Below are positions 9,493 to 61,290 of a stretch of 64,000 nt of DNA, one piece after another (positions within the stretch are counted from its first letter, which is position 1; every line of letters begins with the position of its first letter). The notes beneath the pieces were generated by a model, which was not told the DNA's origin, searched no databases, and saw only the letters and a list, made by a program, of their open reading frames with translations. Both the position numbers and the translations under genes were made by a program. Origin of the DNA: a virus; the IMG/VR virus record IMGVR_UViG_3300024261_000009, positions 53,233 to 117,232 of that record; one strand, given 5' to 3'.

Positions 9493-9849
9493 ATGTTAGA
9501 TATTGCATACAGGATAGGTTCTCGAAGGGCAGAAGAGGAGGCTCTTTTAAAGCATTCCTCGCTGGCTAAGAGTTTAGCAGCAGCAGGCGTGTCCGGGAGC
9601 GTTATAGGTTCCGTAGGAAGCCAGTTGAGTTCCAGAGATGACGGTTCCCTATTCCTAGACCCCAAGCAGGTGTCCGGCCAGGCTATCACAGAGGGGGCCG
9701 CTACAGGACTAGGCGCAATGGGGGGGTTAGCCGCGGGTAGAACCTTCGGAAAAGGCTTTTGGCCCAGCGTTCTGGGAATGGCTCTGGGAGGTACTATAGC
9801 CCCTACCGCTGTAAGAAACCTAGGTTCGAGTAGAAACAATGTCTATTAG
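9493..9849 (+). CDS. Small Gly-zipper protein with ML-x-x-AY-x-x-GS leader
   Basis: This 118-residue protein opens with ML-x-x-AYR-x-GS-x-x-AEEEALLKHS, matching the two upstream genes. Residues 65-110 form a glycine-rich hydrophobic segment of alternating GxxxG repeats compatible with one or two membrane helices. Its last 11 bases overlap the start of the beta-prime C-terminal gene, so the polymerase piece is probably translated by coupling to this gene. Confidence 0.6.
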   Translation: MLDIAYRIGSRRAEEEALLKHSSLAKSLAAAGVSGSVIGSVGSQLSSRDDGSLFLDPKQVSGQAITEGAATGLGAMGGLAAGRTFGKGFWPSVLGMALGGTIAPTAVRNLGSSRNNVY

Positions 9850-11617
9850 TGGGCCTCTAGGGAGTGTATTGGTCAACTCACTGCTTCCCGAAGTTCACCG
9901 AATTTCGGGGCCTCTGGATAAGAAAAACCTTCGGACCAGTTTAAAAGAGTACGCGCGTAAAGACCCAAGAGGGTACGCCGAAAAAGTTACGGATATTAAG
10001 AATCTGGGGGATGAGTTTGCTACTTACGAGGGCGTGTCCGTCGGCCTAGACGATATAGAACCTCAGTACAGGGTCCGGGACCCTATCCTGAAGAACGCTC
10101 GAAAACAGTTCTGGTCGGCAAAGTCCGAGGACGAAAAGACTAAGGTGCTCCTAGCAACGCAAGATAAGCTGAAGGGCATAACTGGGTCCCACCCGGGCGA
10201 CTTGGGTCTTATGGCTCGTTCCGGGGGTCGGGGAAACTTGGCTCAGATGATGAAGGCAACAGCCTCCCCTGTGGTGATTGGCGATTACCACGGAGCGCCG
10301 GTTCCCTACTTAATATCGAGGGGCTACTCGGAAGGACTAGCTCCAGCAGAGCATTGGATAGCGGGAGACGAGAGTCGCGCTCAGGTTATTAAGGGTCAGT
10401 TAGGGACGGCGGACCCTGGGGAACTTGGGAATATAATGGCCGCAATGATGTCCTCTCAGGTTATCTCGTCAGAAGACTGTGGGACAGACAATGGGCTTCT
10501 ACTAAAGTCTGGGGATACAAACTCTCTAGGCCGGTTTGAGGCGGGAACGAACAGAATAGTAGACTCCCGGATATTAAAAGCTGTAGGTAGGACCGGGGGC
10601 ATTAAAGTTCGCTCCCCAATGACCTGCGAGCTCCCCTCTGGAGTGTGCAAAAAGTGTCAGGGAACGAACAACTACGGAGAACTCGAGGAAATAGGTTCCA
10701 ACGTAGGAGTAGCTTCTGCCCAAGCTTTGGGTGAACCTCTAACCCAACTAACGCTGTCTTCAAAGCACGGTATAAGTTTTGTTGAAGGGGATCGGGATAT
10801 ACCCCGAGGCGTGGCTGCAGTTAGACAATTTCTAGAGACGCCCTCTTCCTTTATGGCCAAGGCAACTTTGGCCCAGAACAACGGAACGGTTACTCATATA
10901 AGCAGGGCCCCTCAAGGGGGGCACGATATTAATGTCTCAGGCACCTCTCACTATGTCCCTCCCAGTAGGGGTATACGAGTGTCAGTTGGCGACAGAGTAT
11001 CCCCCGGGGACACTCTAACTAACGGGGTCCCGTCTCCGGTGGAAGTCGTTAAGTACAAGGGTTTGGGAGAAGGTCGAAAGTATCTTACGGATGCGATGCA
11101 TAAGGTTTACGGGGACTCCGGAGTAAATATAGACAAGCGTCACCTAGAGAACTTGGTGAAAGCCCAGTTAGGGTACTACAAGGTAACAGGAAGCGGCATA
11201 GGACAGCACCTACCTGGAGAAGTGATAACCTCTAAGGAGGTAGAAGCGGCCTACCAGGTGAGAGCTAAAAAGTTTCCAGTATCCGGGGCAAGCGGTAAAA
11301 TATTAGCTAAGCAGACTCTCCACCACCTCCCAGGGACTCCTATAGACTCCGGAATGGTCAACCAGTTTAGAGAGGCGAAACTTCCATCTGTTTACGCGGT
11401 GGAGGAGGACCCGAACGTGGAGCCCTTCGTTACTTCGGCTTCAAGGGTTCCGCTGCTAAATCCTGACTGGCTCCAGAGACTCGGACATAGATACCAAAAG
11501 GATACTCTGCTTCAGGCAGCTAACTACGGGGAAAAGTCAGACATACACTCGCATAATCCAGTCCCAGCCCTTATTTTCGGTACAGAGATAAGAAAAGGAC
11601 CTGAAGGGAAGTACTAA
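9839..11617 (+). CDS. RNA polymerase beta-prime, C-terminal half (RpoC2-like)
   Basis: This 592-residue protein contains the part of beta-prime missing from the fused gene. MARSGGRGNLAQ (residues 125-136) matches the bridge-helix region. Residues 163-197 (GYSEGLAPAEHW...TADPGELG) match the trigger-helix and loop region. EDCGTDNG (212-219) and C263, C270, C273 rebuild the second beta-prime zinc site together with C214. GVASAQALGEPLTQLT (290-305) is the universally conserved segment, and the C-terminus resembles the switch region before the terminal tail. The start ATG overlaps the upstream gene by 11 bases and has a weak ribosome site. Together with the fused gene it forms a complete catalytic core without alpha, omega or sigma genes in this window. 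Confidence 0.93.
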   Translation: MSISGPLGSVLVNSLLPEVHRISGPLDKKNLRTSLKEYARKDPRGYAEKVTDIKNLGDEFATYEGVSVGLDDIEPQYRVRDPILKNARKQFWSAKSEDEKTKVLLATQDKLKGITGSHPGDLGLMARSGGRGNLAQMMKATASPVVIGDYHGAPVPYLISRGYSEGLAPAEHWIAGDESRAQVIKGQLGTADPGELGNIMAAMMSSQVISSEDCGTDNGLLLKSGDTNSLGRFEAGTNRIVDSRILKAVGRTGGIKVRSPMTCELPSGVCKKCQGTNNYGELEEIGSNVGVASAQALGEPLTQLTLSSKHGISFVEGDRDIPRGVAAVRQFLETPSSFMAKATLAQNNGTVTHISRAPQGGHDINVSGTSHYVPPSRGIRVSVGDRVSPGDTLTNGVPSPVEVVKYKGLGEGRKYLTDAMHKVYGDSGVNIDKRHLENLVKAQLGYYKVTGSGIGQHLPGEVITSKEVEAAYQVRAKKFPVSGASGKILAKQTLHHLPGTPIDSGMVNQFREAKLPSVYAVEEDPNVEPFVTSASRVPLLNPDWLQRLGHRYQKDTLLQAANYGEKSDIHSHNPVPALIFGTEIRKGPEGKY

Positions 11618-51488: not shown

Positions 51489-52013
51489 CTACCTCCCGGG
51501 GGCATTCATTTCAGTACAGCACTCAGGGCACCGAGCGCAATTCTCGGACACCCTATGGTGTTGCCAATTACTAAATATTGAGGCTACCAAGGCGTCCCTA
51601 GTCTCCAGCACTCTCTTCGAGTATCTCAGAGCTGCGGAGGAAGAAGCACACTTTCTCCCTGAATTGTATCTGCACAAAGCTTGCTTCTCGTTACCCTTCT
51701 CCATTTTGAAGTAAGTGGTCCACGCCTTAAACCCCGCGCTAATTAAATCACAGCCTTTTCGGGAACCCTGGGGGCACCAATAACGTGGCAGTACTTGGAG
51801 GGGGCCAATAGCACCCGCAGGGCTCTTTACTCGAGACCTGAAAGTGCTCTCGTGCCAAGCGATAGACAGCATCAGAGTAGGGTCTTCCCCCGTACTTAGG
51901 CTGGTGATTACTATTTCCTCACAGGAGGAAGACTGGTCTTTGGTGGGCTCAGGGTCTTGTAGTCCCCAAAAGAATCCACAGACAATGAAAACATATTGCT
52001 CTAGAGCTCCCAT
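51489..52013 (-). CDS. Lytic transglycosylase, SLT family
   Basis: 174 residues. The N-terminal hydrophobic segment (6-17) may be a signal or membrane anchor. The SLT domain runs from about 45: AWHESTF with catalytic E55, then AGAIGPLQVLP, and LCRYNSGRKC, the canonical E / GLMQ / YN-x-G order. It would cleave peptidoglycan glycan strands during lysis or injection. The C-terminus carries CARCPECCTEMN, a Cys-rich extension related to one in the lipoprotein at 57374. Follows the tRNA gene. Confidence 0.85.
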   Translation of the reverse strand: MGALEQYVFIVCGFFWGLQDPEPTKDQSSSCEEIVITSLSTGEDPTLMLSIAWHESTFRSRVKSPAGAIGPLQVLPRYWCPQGSRKGCDLISAGFKAWTTYFKMEKGNEKQALCRYNSGRKCASSSAALRYSKRVLETRDALVASIFSNWQHHRVSENCARCPECCTEMNAPGR

Positions 52014-56818: not shown

Positions 56819-57151
56819 TTAGACTGTAGGGTCGTACAATCGGTACTTTACCGTCAGTTCTTCGCCCTTACGCACCTCTACTAAAGTGTGCAGGTACATG
56901 CAAAACCGGGGATATATCCCCTTTTCCTGGATGACCTGGCAATTGGGGGCGTCTGAGTGGTTGTAGAACCCTCCCAGGGGGGTCCTTAACATACCATTTG
57001 GTTGGCTTTCAAAGGGTATATGGGTTAGTCCAAGGTTTGTCCCTGCCGGGATGTGTTCAGAAGCGAAAATTCCATAGCCCTCTATCTCTGACGGACCTAG
57101 GTGGAGGCTCTTGGGTAAAGGACGATAATGCTTTCCGGGTCTTTTGTTCAT
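56819..57151 (-). CDS. Small SET-domain protein
   Basis: 110 residues matching a minimal SET domain: EGYGIFASEHIPAGT (I-x-G-x-G-x-F-A), FYNHSDAPNC (NHS-x-x-PN) and GEELTVKYRLY (GEE-L-x-x-x-Y) in order. Catalyses or mimics lysine methyl transfer using SAM. Short for active enzymes but with all core motifs. Phage SET proteins are known; the target here is unknown. Confidence 0.7.
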   Translation of the reverse strand: MNKRPGKHYRPLPKSLHLGPSEIEGYGIFASEHIPAGTNLGLTHIPFESQPNGMLRTPLGGFYNHSDAPNCQVIQEKGIYPRFCMYLHTLVEVRKGEELTVKYRLYDPTV

Positions 57152-57227: not shown

Positions 57228-57374
57228 CTAACTTTCCGATTCTTTTTCGGGTTCCTTTTCGGAAGCCCTATCTAACTGACTCAAGAGGCTTTGGTAGCAC
57301 CACCAGCAATGCTTACTGCCCTCAAGGGCATGTCTTTCTGAGCACAGTTTGCAAAAAGATATCCTCTTAGACAT
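57228..57374 (-). CDS. 48-residue zinc-knuckle protein
   Basis: ATG 57374 with GGGGGAT ribosome site (a longer frame is less likely). CKLCSERH and CWWC pairs form a putative zinc-binding unit, followed by an acidic EKEPEKE tail. ATG overlaps the stop of the upstream lipoprotein gene. Confidence 0.5.
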   Translation of the reverse strand: MSKRISFCKLCSERHALEGSKHCWWCYQSLLSQLDRASEKEPEKESES

Positions 57375-57673
57375 TAGCGATCCCCCTGAGGGGGTGTCGT
57401 GTAGCAGTATTCTTCTAAGTCTGCTCTGGAAAATGTTATCGAGAGAAGGTCCAAATTTTCTTCCAAGCAAACCCCGCCGTCATCCAGGTAAGCTAAGGCG
57501 TTTGAGTCTAGGGGAGTGCAGCAAGCAGGGCACCTGTCACAACTGTCTCTTAACCACTCAGAGTGCCTAGAAACTCTTTCTGATTGTAGAGAGGCGTCCA
57601 AACCCCCACAGGATAAGAGAGGGACTGAGGCCGCGAGTAACAAGGCGGCGGGGCTGAGAAAGGAACTATTCAT
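57374..57673 (-). CDS. Lipoprotein with CxRCPxCCT motif, outer-spanin candidate
   Basis: 99 residues with an N-terminal signal peptide ending in lipobox LLSC (Cys about 22). The mature part contains CDRCPACCT, almost identical to the C-terminal CARCPECCT of the transglycosylase at 51489. Short outer-membrane lipoproteins in phages can be o-spanins. The shared Cys motif suggests a partnership in envelope disruption. Inference. Confidence 0.6.
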   Translation of the reverse strand: MNSSFLSPAALLLAASVPLLSCGGLDASLQSERVSRHSEWLRDSCDRCPACCTPLDSNALAYLDDGGVCLEENLDLLSITFSRADLEEYCYTTPPQGDR

Positions 57674-57881
57674 AAGGAGTCTCCGAGTCAGGGGGAATCT
57701 ACTTAGTATTAAGTAAGCATAAAGCTAAGTCCATATAAAACGGTACTTAGAGCGACTAAACCGTACTTAAGGGCAAGATGCTAGGGTTTAAGGATTAAAT
57801 AAGGACTTAAGGGCTTACTTAAGCGCTTAAGAGCCCCACTATTAGTATGTAACCGTTAGTTAGCGTTCGGGGTATTTACTT
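57674..57881. repeat. Repeat-rich spacer with CTTAAG sites
   Basis: The 208-base gap between the leftward block and the rightward envelope cassette contains four CTTAAG sites (57766, 57806, 57818, 57826), a perfect palindrome CTTAAGCGCTTAAG (57818-57831), direct repeats ACTTAAGGGC (57765 and 57805), and CGGTACTTA/CCGTACTTA copies. Iteron-like: a candidate operator, replication origin or promoter cluster. No gene here. Confidence 0.6.
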
Positions 57882-58175
57882 ATGGGCTACTTTTTGATCT
57901 CAATCATCCTCGTAGTTTTAGTGGCAGTTCAAATAGTCATGACACTGACCACGGCTAAGGAACTAGATGCGCTTAGAAAATCTATAAAGACGGTTAAGTT
58001 AAGCCTAGACAACGTAAAAACAACGGTAGGGAGCCTTGCTAAAGACAAGACTGCTCATCATAAGCGGTCTAGTCAGACAGTTTCCCCCAAGAAGGACCTT
58101 TCCGGAGAGTTAGACCTATACCACCAAGGCCAGGTTGCCACTGTAAAGGCTGTTTTTAGGCCTGGAGGGCGCTGA
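57882..58175 (+). CDS. Single-span membrane protein with coiled coil
   Basis: 97 residues: hydrophobic segment 4-23, then a charged coiled coil (LDALRKSIKTVKLSL) and a basic tail. Leads the rightward cassette and is immediately followed by the VWA lipoprotein gene. Could anchor or assemble the secreted proteins, or be a spanin-like protein. Confidence 0.6.
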   Translation: MGYFLISIILVVLVAVQIVMTLTTAKELDALRKSIKTVKLSLDNVKTTVGSLAKDKTAHHKRSSQTVSPKKDLSGELDLYHQGQVATVKAVFRPGGR

Positions 58176-58176
58176 T

Positions 58177-60240
58177 ATGAGCCCGAAGTTAGTAGCTATG
58201 ATTCTTATATTTGTAGCAGCCTGTTCGGATCCCAGGGAATCTCTCACCACTTACCCCCCAGAAGCGGGCACTCTAAGACTAGCTCCGGCGTCAAGTACGG
58301 ATGGGGGGCCTGACGCCCACCTTTTAGAAACGCTAGATACGAGTATCGCCGCTACGGGGAACCTTCCTAGTCAGGAGTACCAGGACTCCTGCTGGAGATC
58401 TCAGTACTGGCACTGTCCCCCTTTTGACGAGGTATGGCGGGTGGAGGTCGTGTTTGATGTTTGTGATGACGAGGGCGTGCCCTGCACTCCTAATCAGCAG
58501 CCAGACCCGAGTTGCAGGTGGACTCTAGTATCGGAGGGGGAGTGTTCTCACTACCAGGACTGCGATCCCGCGGATCTACGGGTGTCTTACCAGCCTTGCC
58601 AGGTAGAAGACCTGGAGGGGCAAATTCAGCAGGGCCAGCAAGAGGTTCGATGTCGAAAGGGAGCTTTAGATAGGGGAGAGTGTACGCCTTGCTCCGGGGA
58701 GTCTTGTAACGGACGGGACGATGATTGTGACGGGCTAGTTGATGAGGGTGTTTATGAATGTGTCGGAGAGTGTGGAGAAGGTATAGCCGAGTGCGTTGAT
58801 GGAACGTTGGGCGCTTGTAGGGGACCTTCTGCCTCTGAGGAGGTCTGTGACCTAGAGGATAATGACTGTGACGGGCTAGTTGATGAGGGTCAGCTCAATG
58901 CCTGCGGTAACTGTGGGGGCGTTCCAGAGGAAACTTGTGACGGAATAGATAATGACTGTGATGGCGATCTTGACGAAGAGCTAATACAAATATGCGAAAG
59001 CCGGTGCGAGGAAGGTGTCCAGCTGTGTGTTAGCGGTCGGTGGTCTGCGTGCACCGCCAGGACACCTCGGGAAGAAACCTGCGATGCTTCTGACAATGAC
59101 TGTGATGGCCGAATTGACGAGACACTAACGTGTACTTGTCCCCCCGAGATACTAGGGGCCCTAATGCCCTGTCAAGAGCCCCCTCTAGAGTGTGGGTCAG
59201 GGTTCAAGGTGTGCGAGTGTGCGGGGGATAATTGTATCAGTACTCAGTGGACTCCTTGTCGCGCCCCCTGCCAGGTTCTGGGAGTTCAGCCCTGCGATCC
59301 ATCGGGAGGAGTACCTACGGATGAGATCTGTAACGCTTACGATGATAATTGCAACGAGGCTGTGGACGAAGACCTCTTTAGGGAGTGTTACTCAGGACCC
59401 GAAGGCACTCTGGGGGTAGGGCTTTGCTCCTCAGGAAGTCAGAACTGTTCCTCGGGCAGGTGGGGCTCTGAGGTGCGGGGCTTATTTGTGGAGGACATCT
59501 GCCTGGACGAGATTCTTCCTAGAGAAGAGATATGCAACGGCGAAGATGATAACTGTGATGGCGAGATCGAAGAGGACCTTCAGCCAACGGATATCATGTT
59601 TGTTGTGGACACCTCAGGGTCAATGCGGGAAGAGATCCGAGCTGTTCAAGAAGCAATGACAGCATTCTCTGCGAGCTTCCAAGGATCCCCTGCCCTACGG
59701 TGGGGGCTTATAGTGGGTCCCGTCGGACCTAATGACCGATTAGAGTTGGTGGTACACCCTGTTCCCTTCGATCAGTTTATACCCGCGCTAGCTTCCGTAG
59801 CGGAGACTAACACCAGCGAAGAGATGCTGCGGGATGCTTTGTATTTGTGTGTTAGGAATCTTGTTCCCTTCGGAACCTTACCTCCAGAGCACGTAAATAT
59901 CCGCTGGGGCAACAGCGTAGGTTTCTCTACCCCTCCCTTAGTGACCTTTAATGTCCGGTGGAGAGAGGCGGCTGACAAAGTCATCATCATACTTACAGAC
60001 GAAGAATCACAGTCCTACCTAGTTCCCCAGATAGAGACCGAGTTCTTAGCTCAAGCTTTACAGCAGGTAGCGGGACTAAGTGTTCATATATTTACTACGC
60101 CAAACAACGCGGATAACGGTGTAGGTCCCTGGGCTCCCCTAGCGGTGGGGGGAAGAGTTCACGCCTTGACCAGTCAACCAGACGAGATGTTCATGGAAAT
60201 GATGGGGATACTCGACGAAGAGGTGTGTAGAGGTGACTGA
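58177..60240 (+). CDS. Outer-membrane lipoprotein with MopE-type repeats and VWA domain
   Basis: 687 residues. Signal peptide with lipobox VAAC (C16, Ser at +2, predicting outer-membrane sorting). Six cysteine/aspartate repeats of the form C-x3-D-[DN]-[DN]-C-[DN]-[GE]-x-x-[DE]-E occur at about 180-470 (for example CDGIDNDCDG), as in MopE-type repeats known from Myxococcota and relatives. They alternate with other Cys-rich segments. A von Willebrand A domain follows, with MIDAS D478-T-S480-G-S482 and a further acidic D608 (LTDEE), typical of metal-dependent adhesion. It likely modifies or decorates the infected-cell surface, or binds other cells or phage. GGAGGG ribosome site. Unusual in a phage. 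Confidence 0.9.
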   Translation: MSPKLVAMILIFVAACSDPRESLTTYPPEAGTLRLAPASSTDGGPDAHLLETLDTSIAATGNLPSQEYQDSCWRSQYWHCPPFDEVWRVEVVFDVCDDEGVPCTPNQQPDPSCRWTLVSEGECSHYQDCDPADLRVSYQPCQVEDLEGQIQQGQQEVRCRKGALDRGECTPCSGESCNGRDDDCDGLVDEGVYECVGECGEGIAECVDGTLGACRGPSASEEVCDLEDNDCDGLVDEGQLNACGNCGGVPEETCDGIDNDCDGDLDEELIQICESRCEEGVQLCVSGRWSACTARTPREETCDASDNDCDGRIDETLTCTCPPEILGALMPCQEPPLECGSGFKVCECAGDNCISTQWTPCRAPCQVLGVQPCDPSGGVPTDEICNAYDDNCNEAVDEDLFRECYSGPEGTLGVGLCSSGSQNCSSGRWGSEVRGLFVEDICLDEILPREEICNGEDDNCDGEIEEDLQPTDIMFVVDTSGSMREEIRAVQEAMTAFSASFQGSPALRWGLIVGPVGPNDRLELVVHPVPFDQFIPALASVAETNTSEEMLRDALYLCVRNLVPFGTLPPEHVNIRWGNSVGFSTPPLVTFNVRWREAADKVIIILTDEESQSYLVPQIETEFLAQALQQVAGLSVHIFTTPNNADNGVGPWAPLAVGGRVHALTSQPDEMFMEMMGILDEEVCRGD

Positions 60241-60490
60241 TATCTTTCAAAAAGGGACTCGAGGGTACCTAAAGAAACCTGTGATAGTTGAACAGGCCTC
60301 GGCAGATGTAGAGTCCCTATCAGTTCTCCCCAAGGACGCCGTCATAGAGGTGTTCTCGGTAATACCTCCGGCAGTCCTGGCTAGTCTGCCTCCGAGCAAC
60401 ACTCTGCGTGTGTACAAGTTCCTGTGCCCCGTATCTTGGGCGGATCTAATCAAAGTGACCTATAACCCCCCCACTGGAAGGGTGATCTGA
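60233..60490 (+). CDS. Hypothetical 85-residue protein in envelope cassette
   Basis: GTG start overlapping the lipoprotein stop; its own end overlaps the protease start. Small, beta-rich, with conserved-looking Pro/Leu/Val runs. Probably a chaperone or periplasmic partner by position only. Confidence 0.55.
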   Translation: MTDIFQKGTRGYLKKPVIVEQASADVESLSVLPKDAVIEVFSVIPPAVLASLPPSNTLRVYKFLCPVSWADLIKVTYNPPTGRVI

Positions 60491-61290
60491 TGAAACCAAC
60501 TAGGACTAAAATATCTGCGGTAGGTTTAGCGATGCTTCTCTTACTGTTGTCCGTTTTTGGGCCCTCTTGCTGCGGGCAAACGCCCTGGAGGTTGCTTCCT
60601 CAAAATAGTCGGGAAGTACCTGAAATAGAAAAGTCCTTTCTATTTATAACCCACCAGTTTACTCAAAAGCTTTGCAGAGAAGAGATATGTCTAGAGGGTC
60701 CTCTGAGAGTAATAGCTGGGTCCGGGTTTTCCGTGGCCCTAAGCGGTAGCTATACTTGGGTGGTTACGGCAGCCCACCTGTGCCTACCTAGTAACGACAT
60801 TGTCAATTCTCAAATGGTGGCTACAGGTTTAGGGGGTGTGAGTTACTCTGCGGTGGTACGGCATGCGGAGCCTTCCGTAGACTTATGCTTCTTAACTATT
60901 CAGGGCGCAGCTATCCCCCCCGTTGTAATAGCGGATAAAGACGTTTCGAGAGGGGAAAGAGTCTTGGCTCTTGGATCGCCGCTTGGACTCTTCGATTCGA
61001 ATATGATCCCTAAATTTGAGGGGTTCTACGCGGGTAGTACCACTGAGATACAGCGTCCGGATGACCCATCTAAAAAATTTCCCACTCTAGATGGGTTTAC
61101 TGTTCCTGCAAGACCCGGCTCTTCTGGGGGCCCTATCTTCAACGCATCCGGGGAACTAGTAGGGGTGATGATAATGGCCAAGCCTGACTTTGAGACTTTC
61201 ACCTTATCACCACCCCAAGCACTCGTTAGGACGCTACTTGCCTCCGTCCAACGTAACTCTGAGCGACTTATCAGTCCGGAACTTCACTAG
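60490..61290 (+). CDS. Secreted trypsin-like serine protease
   Basis: 266 residues. N-terminal signal peptide (residues 8-26, ending near GPSCC). Chymotrypsin-fold signature: TAAH with H96, D131 in VDLCFL, and PGSSGGP with S212 as nucleophile, all in the usual order. VLALGSPLG and VGVMIM strands match HtrA-type proteases. It would act in the periplasm, outer membrane or medium. No PDZ domain. Shares the cassette with the VWA lipoprotein, which may be its substrate or partner. Confidence 0.85.
   Translation: MKPTRTKISAVGLAMLLLLLSVFGPSCCGQTPWRLLPQNSREVPEIEKSFLFITHQFTQKLCREEICLEGPLRVIAGSGFSVALSGSYTWVVTAAHLCLPSNDIVNSQMVATGLGGVSYSAVVRHAEPSVDLCFLTIQGAAIPPVVIADKDVSRGERVLALGSPLGLFDSNMIPKFEGFYAGSTTEIQRPDDPSKKFPTLDGFTVPARPGSSGGPIFNASGELVGVMIMAKPDFETFTLSPPQALVRTLLASVQRNSERLISPELH

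What the first reader, a model, noticed from the sequence alone, without database searches (positions are those of the whole stretch)
57882..61290. Phage-encoded envelope cassette: VWA/MopE lipoprotein plus secreted trypsin-like protease
Seen: four tightly coupled rightward genes: a membrane coiled-coil protein, a 687-residue lipoprotein with six Cys/Asp repeats and a complete VWA MIDAS (D478, S480, S482), a small protein, and a signal-bearing serine protease with full triad (H96, D131, S212). Known: such repeats and VWA proteins are typical of bacterial surfaces. Inference: remodels the infected-cell surface, for example blocking other phages, altering adhesion, or a two-part protease/receptor system. 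Not a recognised phage system to me.
Basis: partly seen in the sequence, partly recalled or inferred. Interest (0 to 1): 0.85.

Follow-up and report, generated by a model that had tools for sequence, protein, structure and literature searches.

The report
Phage integrin-like lipoprotein and protease pair
An uncultured phage carries a linked pair of membrane-anchored genes, an integrin-like sticky protein and a protease, and the same pair turns up in otherwise unrelated uncultured phages but in no deposited phage genome, so phages seem to share an undescribed tool for working on the infected cell's surface.

Summary
In detail: four rightward, tightly coupled ORFs (57882-61290), with a 687-aa VWA/MopE lipoprotein (six repeats) and a trypsin-like protease with triad H96/D131/S212. 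Two corrections. The MIDAS is integrin-beta-like (D478, S480, S482, E549, D608), and the protease is also a lipoprotein (invariant Cys27). Only these two genes form the conserved unit; the 97-aa and 85-aa genes showed no homologue in the loci examined. IMG/VR holds at least 165 VWA and 179 protease stretches; 50,697 deposited phages hold none. In records of at least 100 kb, 14 of 16 VWA carriers have the protease and 13 of 14 protease carriers have the VWA gene. Four phage lineages that share only 2-8 genes all carry both, and VWA is the strongest shared gene in every cross-lineage pair. In three lineages the two genes are neighbours. Both are under strong purifying selection. Cellular (mainly Myxococcota) relatives match only the MopE repeats. 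Best reading: a phage-specific, exchanged two-lipoprotein module, made during infection, acting at the outer membrane by metal-dependent binding and proteolysis. Superinfection exclusion is my leading but unproven function; adhesion and lysis assistance remain open. I found no description in the open literature searched. Host and function are unknown.

The parts
58177..60240 (+). Core gene 1: VWA/MopE lipoprotein, 687 aa. Signal peptide and lipobox (Cys16), Cys-rich N-terminal region, six MopE CDGxDNDCDG repeats, C-terminal integrin-beta-like VWA domain (about residues 466-684).
   Evidence: at least 165 homologous stretches in IMG/VR
60490..61290 (+). Core gene 2: trypsin/HtrA-fold serine protease without PDZ domain, 266 aa, lipoprotein (Cys27), triad H96/D131/S212, conserved Cys98 and Cys133
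   Evidence: 179 homologous stretches in IMG/VR
57882..58175 (+). Window-specific gene: 97-aa protein with an N-terminal membrane helix and short coiled coil, ending 1 base before the VWA start codon
   Evidence: no homologue in the related loci
60233..60490 (+). Window-specific small gene (85 aa, GTG start) that overlaps the 3' end of the VWA gene by 8 bases and the protease start codon by 1 base; likely translational coupling
   Evidence: no family match; no homologue in related loci
57763..57887 (+). Intergenic region with five CTTAAGnGC-like repeats, a possible control region of the island
   Evidence: sigma-70 scan found no promoter here
59608..59622 (+). MIDAS DxSxS motif (residues D478, S480, S482)
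   Evidence: Invariant in 55 homologues

Best explanation
A phage-specific, horizontally exchanged two-lipoprotein module. Shown or directly read from sequence: both proteins carry export signals and lipoboxes; the VWA protein has an integrin-beta-type MIDAS on a Cys/Asp-rich repeat stalk; the protease has a complete HtrA-like catalytic site; the two genes travel together. Inferred: both are lipidated and sorted to the outer membrane of the infected cell (the residue after the lipidated Cys is never Asp in the VWA members scored); the VWA head binds a conserved ligand through a divalent metal; the protease cuts that ligand, or matures the VWA protein, at the same membrane. Most likely use, and the weakest step: masking or destroying surface structures that competing phages need, i.e. 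superinfection exclusion (about 0.35 by itself).
For: VWA family of at least 165 stretches in viral contigs, full length, mostly 35-44% identical. Protease found once in 29 of 40 and in 32 of 68 VWA-bearing records of all sizes, and in 14 of 16 of at least 100 kb; reverse test 13 of 14. Four lineages sharing only 2-8 genes carry both; G001 and G034 share only these two; VWA is the best shared gene in all 15 cross-lineage pairs. Same-strand neighbours in the window, L002 and L081. Lipobox in essentially all complete members, +2 residue never Asp in 47 scored. Triad and Cys27 invariant in 27 proteases. MIDAS residues invariant; best solved relatives are integrin beta chains by profile (1.3e-4) and by fold (2.2e-7). 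Protease fold matches DegP/DegS/HtrA1 (model pLDDT 87). dN/dS 0.04-0.09. VWA genes often lie among replication or nucleotide genes (RNR, DNA polymerase, helicase, ThyX), which suits expression during infection rather than in the virion.
Against: No experiment, host or expression data. Localisation is predicted with rules from E. coli. Much of the co-occurrence comes from one clade of about 160-285 kb phages, and two VWA phages above 100 kb (G013, G016) lack the protease. Strong purifying selection is not typical of receptor-blocking proteins. In the large clade the protease lies about 9 kb away on the other strand, so it is not co-transcribed there.
Confidence: 0.55

Rival explanations
1. Adhesion device: the integrin-like lipoprotein makes infected cells stick to particles or neighbouring cells, and the protease releases or matures it, helping progeny reach new hosts.
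For: VWA domains with MIDAS are classic adhesion heads; best fold matches are integrin heads and matrix proteins. A cellular precedent is CglB, a VWA surface lipoprotein adhesin of Myxococcus (review PMC12288465). Strong conservation fits a conserved ligand.
Against: No ligand known; a benefit to a lytic phage of aggregating its host is indirect; host unknown.
Confidence: 0.25
2. Lysis helper: the two outer-membrane lipoproteins weaken the outer membrane late in infection, as spanins do.
For: Outer-membrane lipoprotein plus a small N-terminal-TM coiled-coil gene directly upstream in the window resembles an inner/outer spanin layout; weak Rz-like PHROG hit to the 97-aa protein (0.008).
Against: The 97-aa gene is absent from the related loci. 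In the window the SLT lysozyme gene is about 6 kb away on the other strand, and in related phages VWA sits among replication genes. 687 aa with a MIDAS is unlike any o-spanin known to me.
Confidence: 0.12
3. Virion or cell-entry component: a VWA fibre protein as in Bacillus phage 0305phi8-36 gp164.
For: A phage VWA domain is reported in a baseplate/fibre gene (PMC2147016).
Against: Lipoprotein signals in both proteins; not in structural gene clusters in most loci.
Confidence: 0.05
4. Gene hitch-hiking or binning artefact: host genes captured by chance or a misassembled contig.
For: MopE repeats are common in Myxococcota.
Against: Full-length relatives are in many separate viral contigs, under purifying selection, flanked by phage genes, and the VWA domain was not found in 141 Myxococcota genomes.
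Confidence: 0.03

Closest known systems
Myxococcota VWA/MopE surface proteins and CglB (VWA adhesin lipoprotein of Myxococcus xanthus)
   Same: MopE repeats; for CglB, outer-membrane lipoprotein with a VWA domain
   Different: Cellular hits match only the MopE repeats (profile columns about 116-444) and the phage-type VWA domain was not found in 141 Myxococcota genomes. CglB was not compared by sequence here.
Integrin beta I-like domain
   Same: Best solved relatives by sequence profile and fold; shared DxSxS and WR...D motifs; Glu in the second MIDAS loop (integrin side from my own knowledge)
   Different: No hybrid, PSI or EGF domains; bacterial lipoprotein stalk of MopE repeats; low identity (about 14%)
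HtrA/DegP/DegS serine proteases; PHROG 9683 'protease'
   Same: Catalytic fold and triad
   Different: No PDZ domain, lipid anchor, conserved extra cysteines; no NCBIfam HtrA model reaches its cut-off
Phage superinfection-exclusion lipoproteins such as T5 Llp and phage Cor (from my own knowledge)
   Same: Phage-encoded lipoprotein predicted in the outer membrane
   Different: Those are small single proteins of under about 100 aa; this is a 687-aa MIDAS protein paired with a protease. No sequence relation was tested.
Phage CobT/MoxR-type VWA proteins and baseplate VWA (gp164 of 0305phi8-36)
   Same: Phage-encoded VWA domain
   Different: Cytoplasmic or virion proteins, no lipoprotein signal, no MopE repeats (from my own knowledge of those families)

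Membership tests
VWA/MopE surface lipoprotein | MopE repeats and VWA domain above Pfam cut-off | tested here: met
   MopE 56.8 bits (cut-off 27), VWA 26.0 (cut-off 23.8)
VWA/MopE surface lipoprotein | Lipoprotein signal | tested here: met
   Lipobox at Cys16, conserved across the family
Integrin-beta-type VWA domain | MIDAS D-x-S-x-S plus Glu and Asp | tested here: met
   D478, S480, S482, E549, D608 invariant. Which residue fills which loop is inferred from position and predicted secondary structure; no coordinates were measured.
Integrin-beta-type VWA domain | Significant sequence or fold match to integrin beta | tested here: met
   1.3e-4 by profile, 2.2e-7 by fold
HtrA/DegP family | Catalytic triad in a chymotrypsin-like fold | tested here: met
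HtrA/DegP family | C-terminal PDZ domain | tested here: not met
   Pfam finds only Trypsin-type domains; protein ends about 54 residues after the catalytic serine
Superinfection-exclusion system | Blocks infection by a second phage | not testable with these tools
   Needs experiment
Superinfection-exclusion system | Match to a listed anti-phage defence protein | tested here: not met
   VWA: none; protease: only weak generic protease-domain hits
Spanin pair | Adjacent inner-membrane coiled-coil and outer-membrane lipoprotein genes, conserved as a pair | tested here: not met
   The 97-aa partner is not conserved with the VWA gene

The most novel reading that the evidence does not exclude
Unrelated uncultured phages share an undescribed two-lipoprotein surface machine: an integrin-like MIDAS receptor on a Cys/Asp-rich stalk coupled to a membrane-anchored protease, which captures and cuts a conserved target at the infected cell's outer membrane. 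No phage system known to me combines metal-dependent binding and proteolysis on the outside of the host.
Probability: 0.35. Interest if true: 0.9.

Novelty: new variant of a known kind. Interest (0 to 1): 0.72.

Why it matters
The pair is the most strongly shared content between phages that have almost nothing else in common, yet it is missing from every deposited phage genome searched and the VWA part is missing from PHROGs. It points to a widely used way for phages to rework the outside of infected cells, and it gives clear residues to mutate (D478 of the MIDAS, S212 of the protease).

Tried and rejected
A scan of viral contigs with the window protease alone found no relative; the family only appeared through VWA neighbours and an alignment. 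A first protease alignment (A2) was too divergent for scanning. Spanin reading rejected because the 97-aa gene is not conserved. MoxR/CobT-type VWA reading rejected because of the export signal. Cellular origin tested in three phylum searches with the VWA domain: searches turned out to sample the same phylum (identical hits), so they count as one test. Protease search in 96 Myxococcota genomes was empty at 1e-15, but the tool warns that an empty answer without a positive control shows nothing. No sigma-70 promoter or terminator support for the island. Host assignment was not achieved. Literature searches found no description; only open-licence papers are held, and the CglB primary paper was not held.

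Full report
WHAT IS THERE. The window is bases 53,233-117,232 of a 117,232-base IMG/VR virus record. Phage genes in the record include portal- and tail-fibre-like proteins, a helicase, a polymerase-type protein and a head maturation protease-like protein. At 57,882-61,290 four rightward ORFs sit as an island in mostly leftward genes; the three junctions are a 1-base gap, an 8-base overlap and a 1-base overlap.

CORRECTIONS. (a) The protease is itself a lipoprotein: its lipobox cysteine, Cys27, is invariant in 27 homologues, so it is anchored rather than freely secreted. (b) The VWA metal site has Glu549 where most VWA domains have Thr, giving D478/S480/S482/E549/D608, all invariant in 55 homologues. 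This is the integrin beta pattern (integrin side from my own knowledge). A profile of the family finds integrin beta-8 as the only solved relative (the alignment shows the shared DxSxSM and WR..AKR...TD stretches), and the predicted model (pLDDT 83) matches integrin beta-3 best. Identity is about 14%, so this is a likeness of domain type and not a claim of recent descent. (c) The 97-aa and 85-aa genes are not part of the conserved unit.

A FAMILY IN UNCULTURED PHAGES. The VWA protein has at least 165 relatives in viral contigs, mostly full length at 35-44% identity, 30-33% for the most distant. The protease family has 179. tblastn with two members of each finds nothing in 50,697 deposited phages; a RecA control from one of these phages found 1,541 records. 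None of the 55 VWA members has a convincing PHROG. Members are under strong purifying selection: dN/dS 0.04-0.07 for VWA pairs and 0.09 for a protease pair; several other pairs were saturated at synonymous sites.

THE TWO GENES BELONG TOGETHER. In 68 VWA-bearing records the protease profile hits 32 records, always once; most negatives are short fragments. Among records of at least 100 kb it is 14 of 16. Starting from the protease instead, 13 of 14 records of at least 100 kb have the VWA gene. Many of these records are related, so I compared whole records: the window's record, G001 and G034 each share only 2-8 genes with one another and with the clade G003/G027/G029/G028, whose members share 54-88 genes. 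In all 15 cross-lineage pairs the VWA gene is the best-scoring shared gene; the protease is among the top four in most of them, and G001 and G034 share these two genes and nothing else. GC ranges from 36% to 50%. VWA and protease are same-strand neighbours in the window, G001 and G034, and about 9 kb apart on opposite strands in the G003 type. VWA and protease distances correlate over 26 records (Mantel r 0.50, p 0.0003), which shared phage ancestry partly explains.

PHAGE-SPECIFIC? A scan of 84,980 bacterial and archaeal genomes with the family returned mainly Myxococcota and other 'Deltaproteobacteria' whose matches cover only the MopE repeats. The VWA domain was not found as a whole in 141 Myxococcota genomes.

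HOW IT LIKELY WORKS. Both proteins have lipoprotein signals, and the residue after the lipidated Cys is Ser, Gly, Ala or Thr in nearly all VWA members and never Asp, which by the E. coli rule predicts the outer membrane. The six repeats, rich in Cys and Asp, would make a rigid metal-binding stalk (inference). The head would bind an acidic residue of a ligand through a divalent metal (inference from VWA/integrin biology). A membrane-anchored HtrA-like protease without PDZ would act at the same surface, on the ligand or on the VWA protein (inference). VWA genes lie beside RNR, DNA polymerase, helicase, RecA-like and ThyX genes in several lineages, which suits use during infection. I favour superinfection exclusion, then adhesion, then a role in lysis. 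The strong conservation is a real argument against a simple arms-race role and favours a conserved ligand.

NOVELTY. The domains are known and phage surface lipoproteins are known; this architecture, the pairing, and its sharing among unrelated phages are not described in anything I could search. I therefore file it as a new variant of a known kind, with a substantial chance that it is a new kind.

Noticed in passing
window 57374-57673 (-) and 51489-52013 (-): A 99-aa putative lipoprotein (LLSC) and the SLT lysozyme share a CxRCPxCCT motif.
   Followed up: no
window 56819-57151 (-): Phage-encoded SET-domain protein (Pfam SET 1.5e-10); weak homologues in L070 and L071.
   Followed up: no
L002, L004, L006, L007, L015, L022, L041-L047, L049, L055 and others: A DUF5658 multi-pass membrane protein lies next to or near the VWA gene in about 18 of 80 phage loci; a possible third, optional partner.
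   Followed up: partly
L004:11955-12827 and L057:4813-5544: Proteins with an HELVHH metallopeptidase-like motif near the VWA gene, from a family with several copies per locus and no Pfam or PHROG match for the member tested.
   Followed up: no
window 9839-11617 (+): Segment matching phage RNA polymerase beta subunit PHROGs (8.4e-12), which may mean a phage-encoded multisubunit RNA polymerase.
   Followed up: no
window 57763-57887: Five CTTAAGnGC-like repeats upstream of the island.
   Followed up: partly
G000:C1:37604-38806 (-), outside the window: AAA ATPase (phrog_1297, 4.4e-42) with distant relatives in G003 and G028.
   Followed up: no
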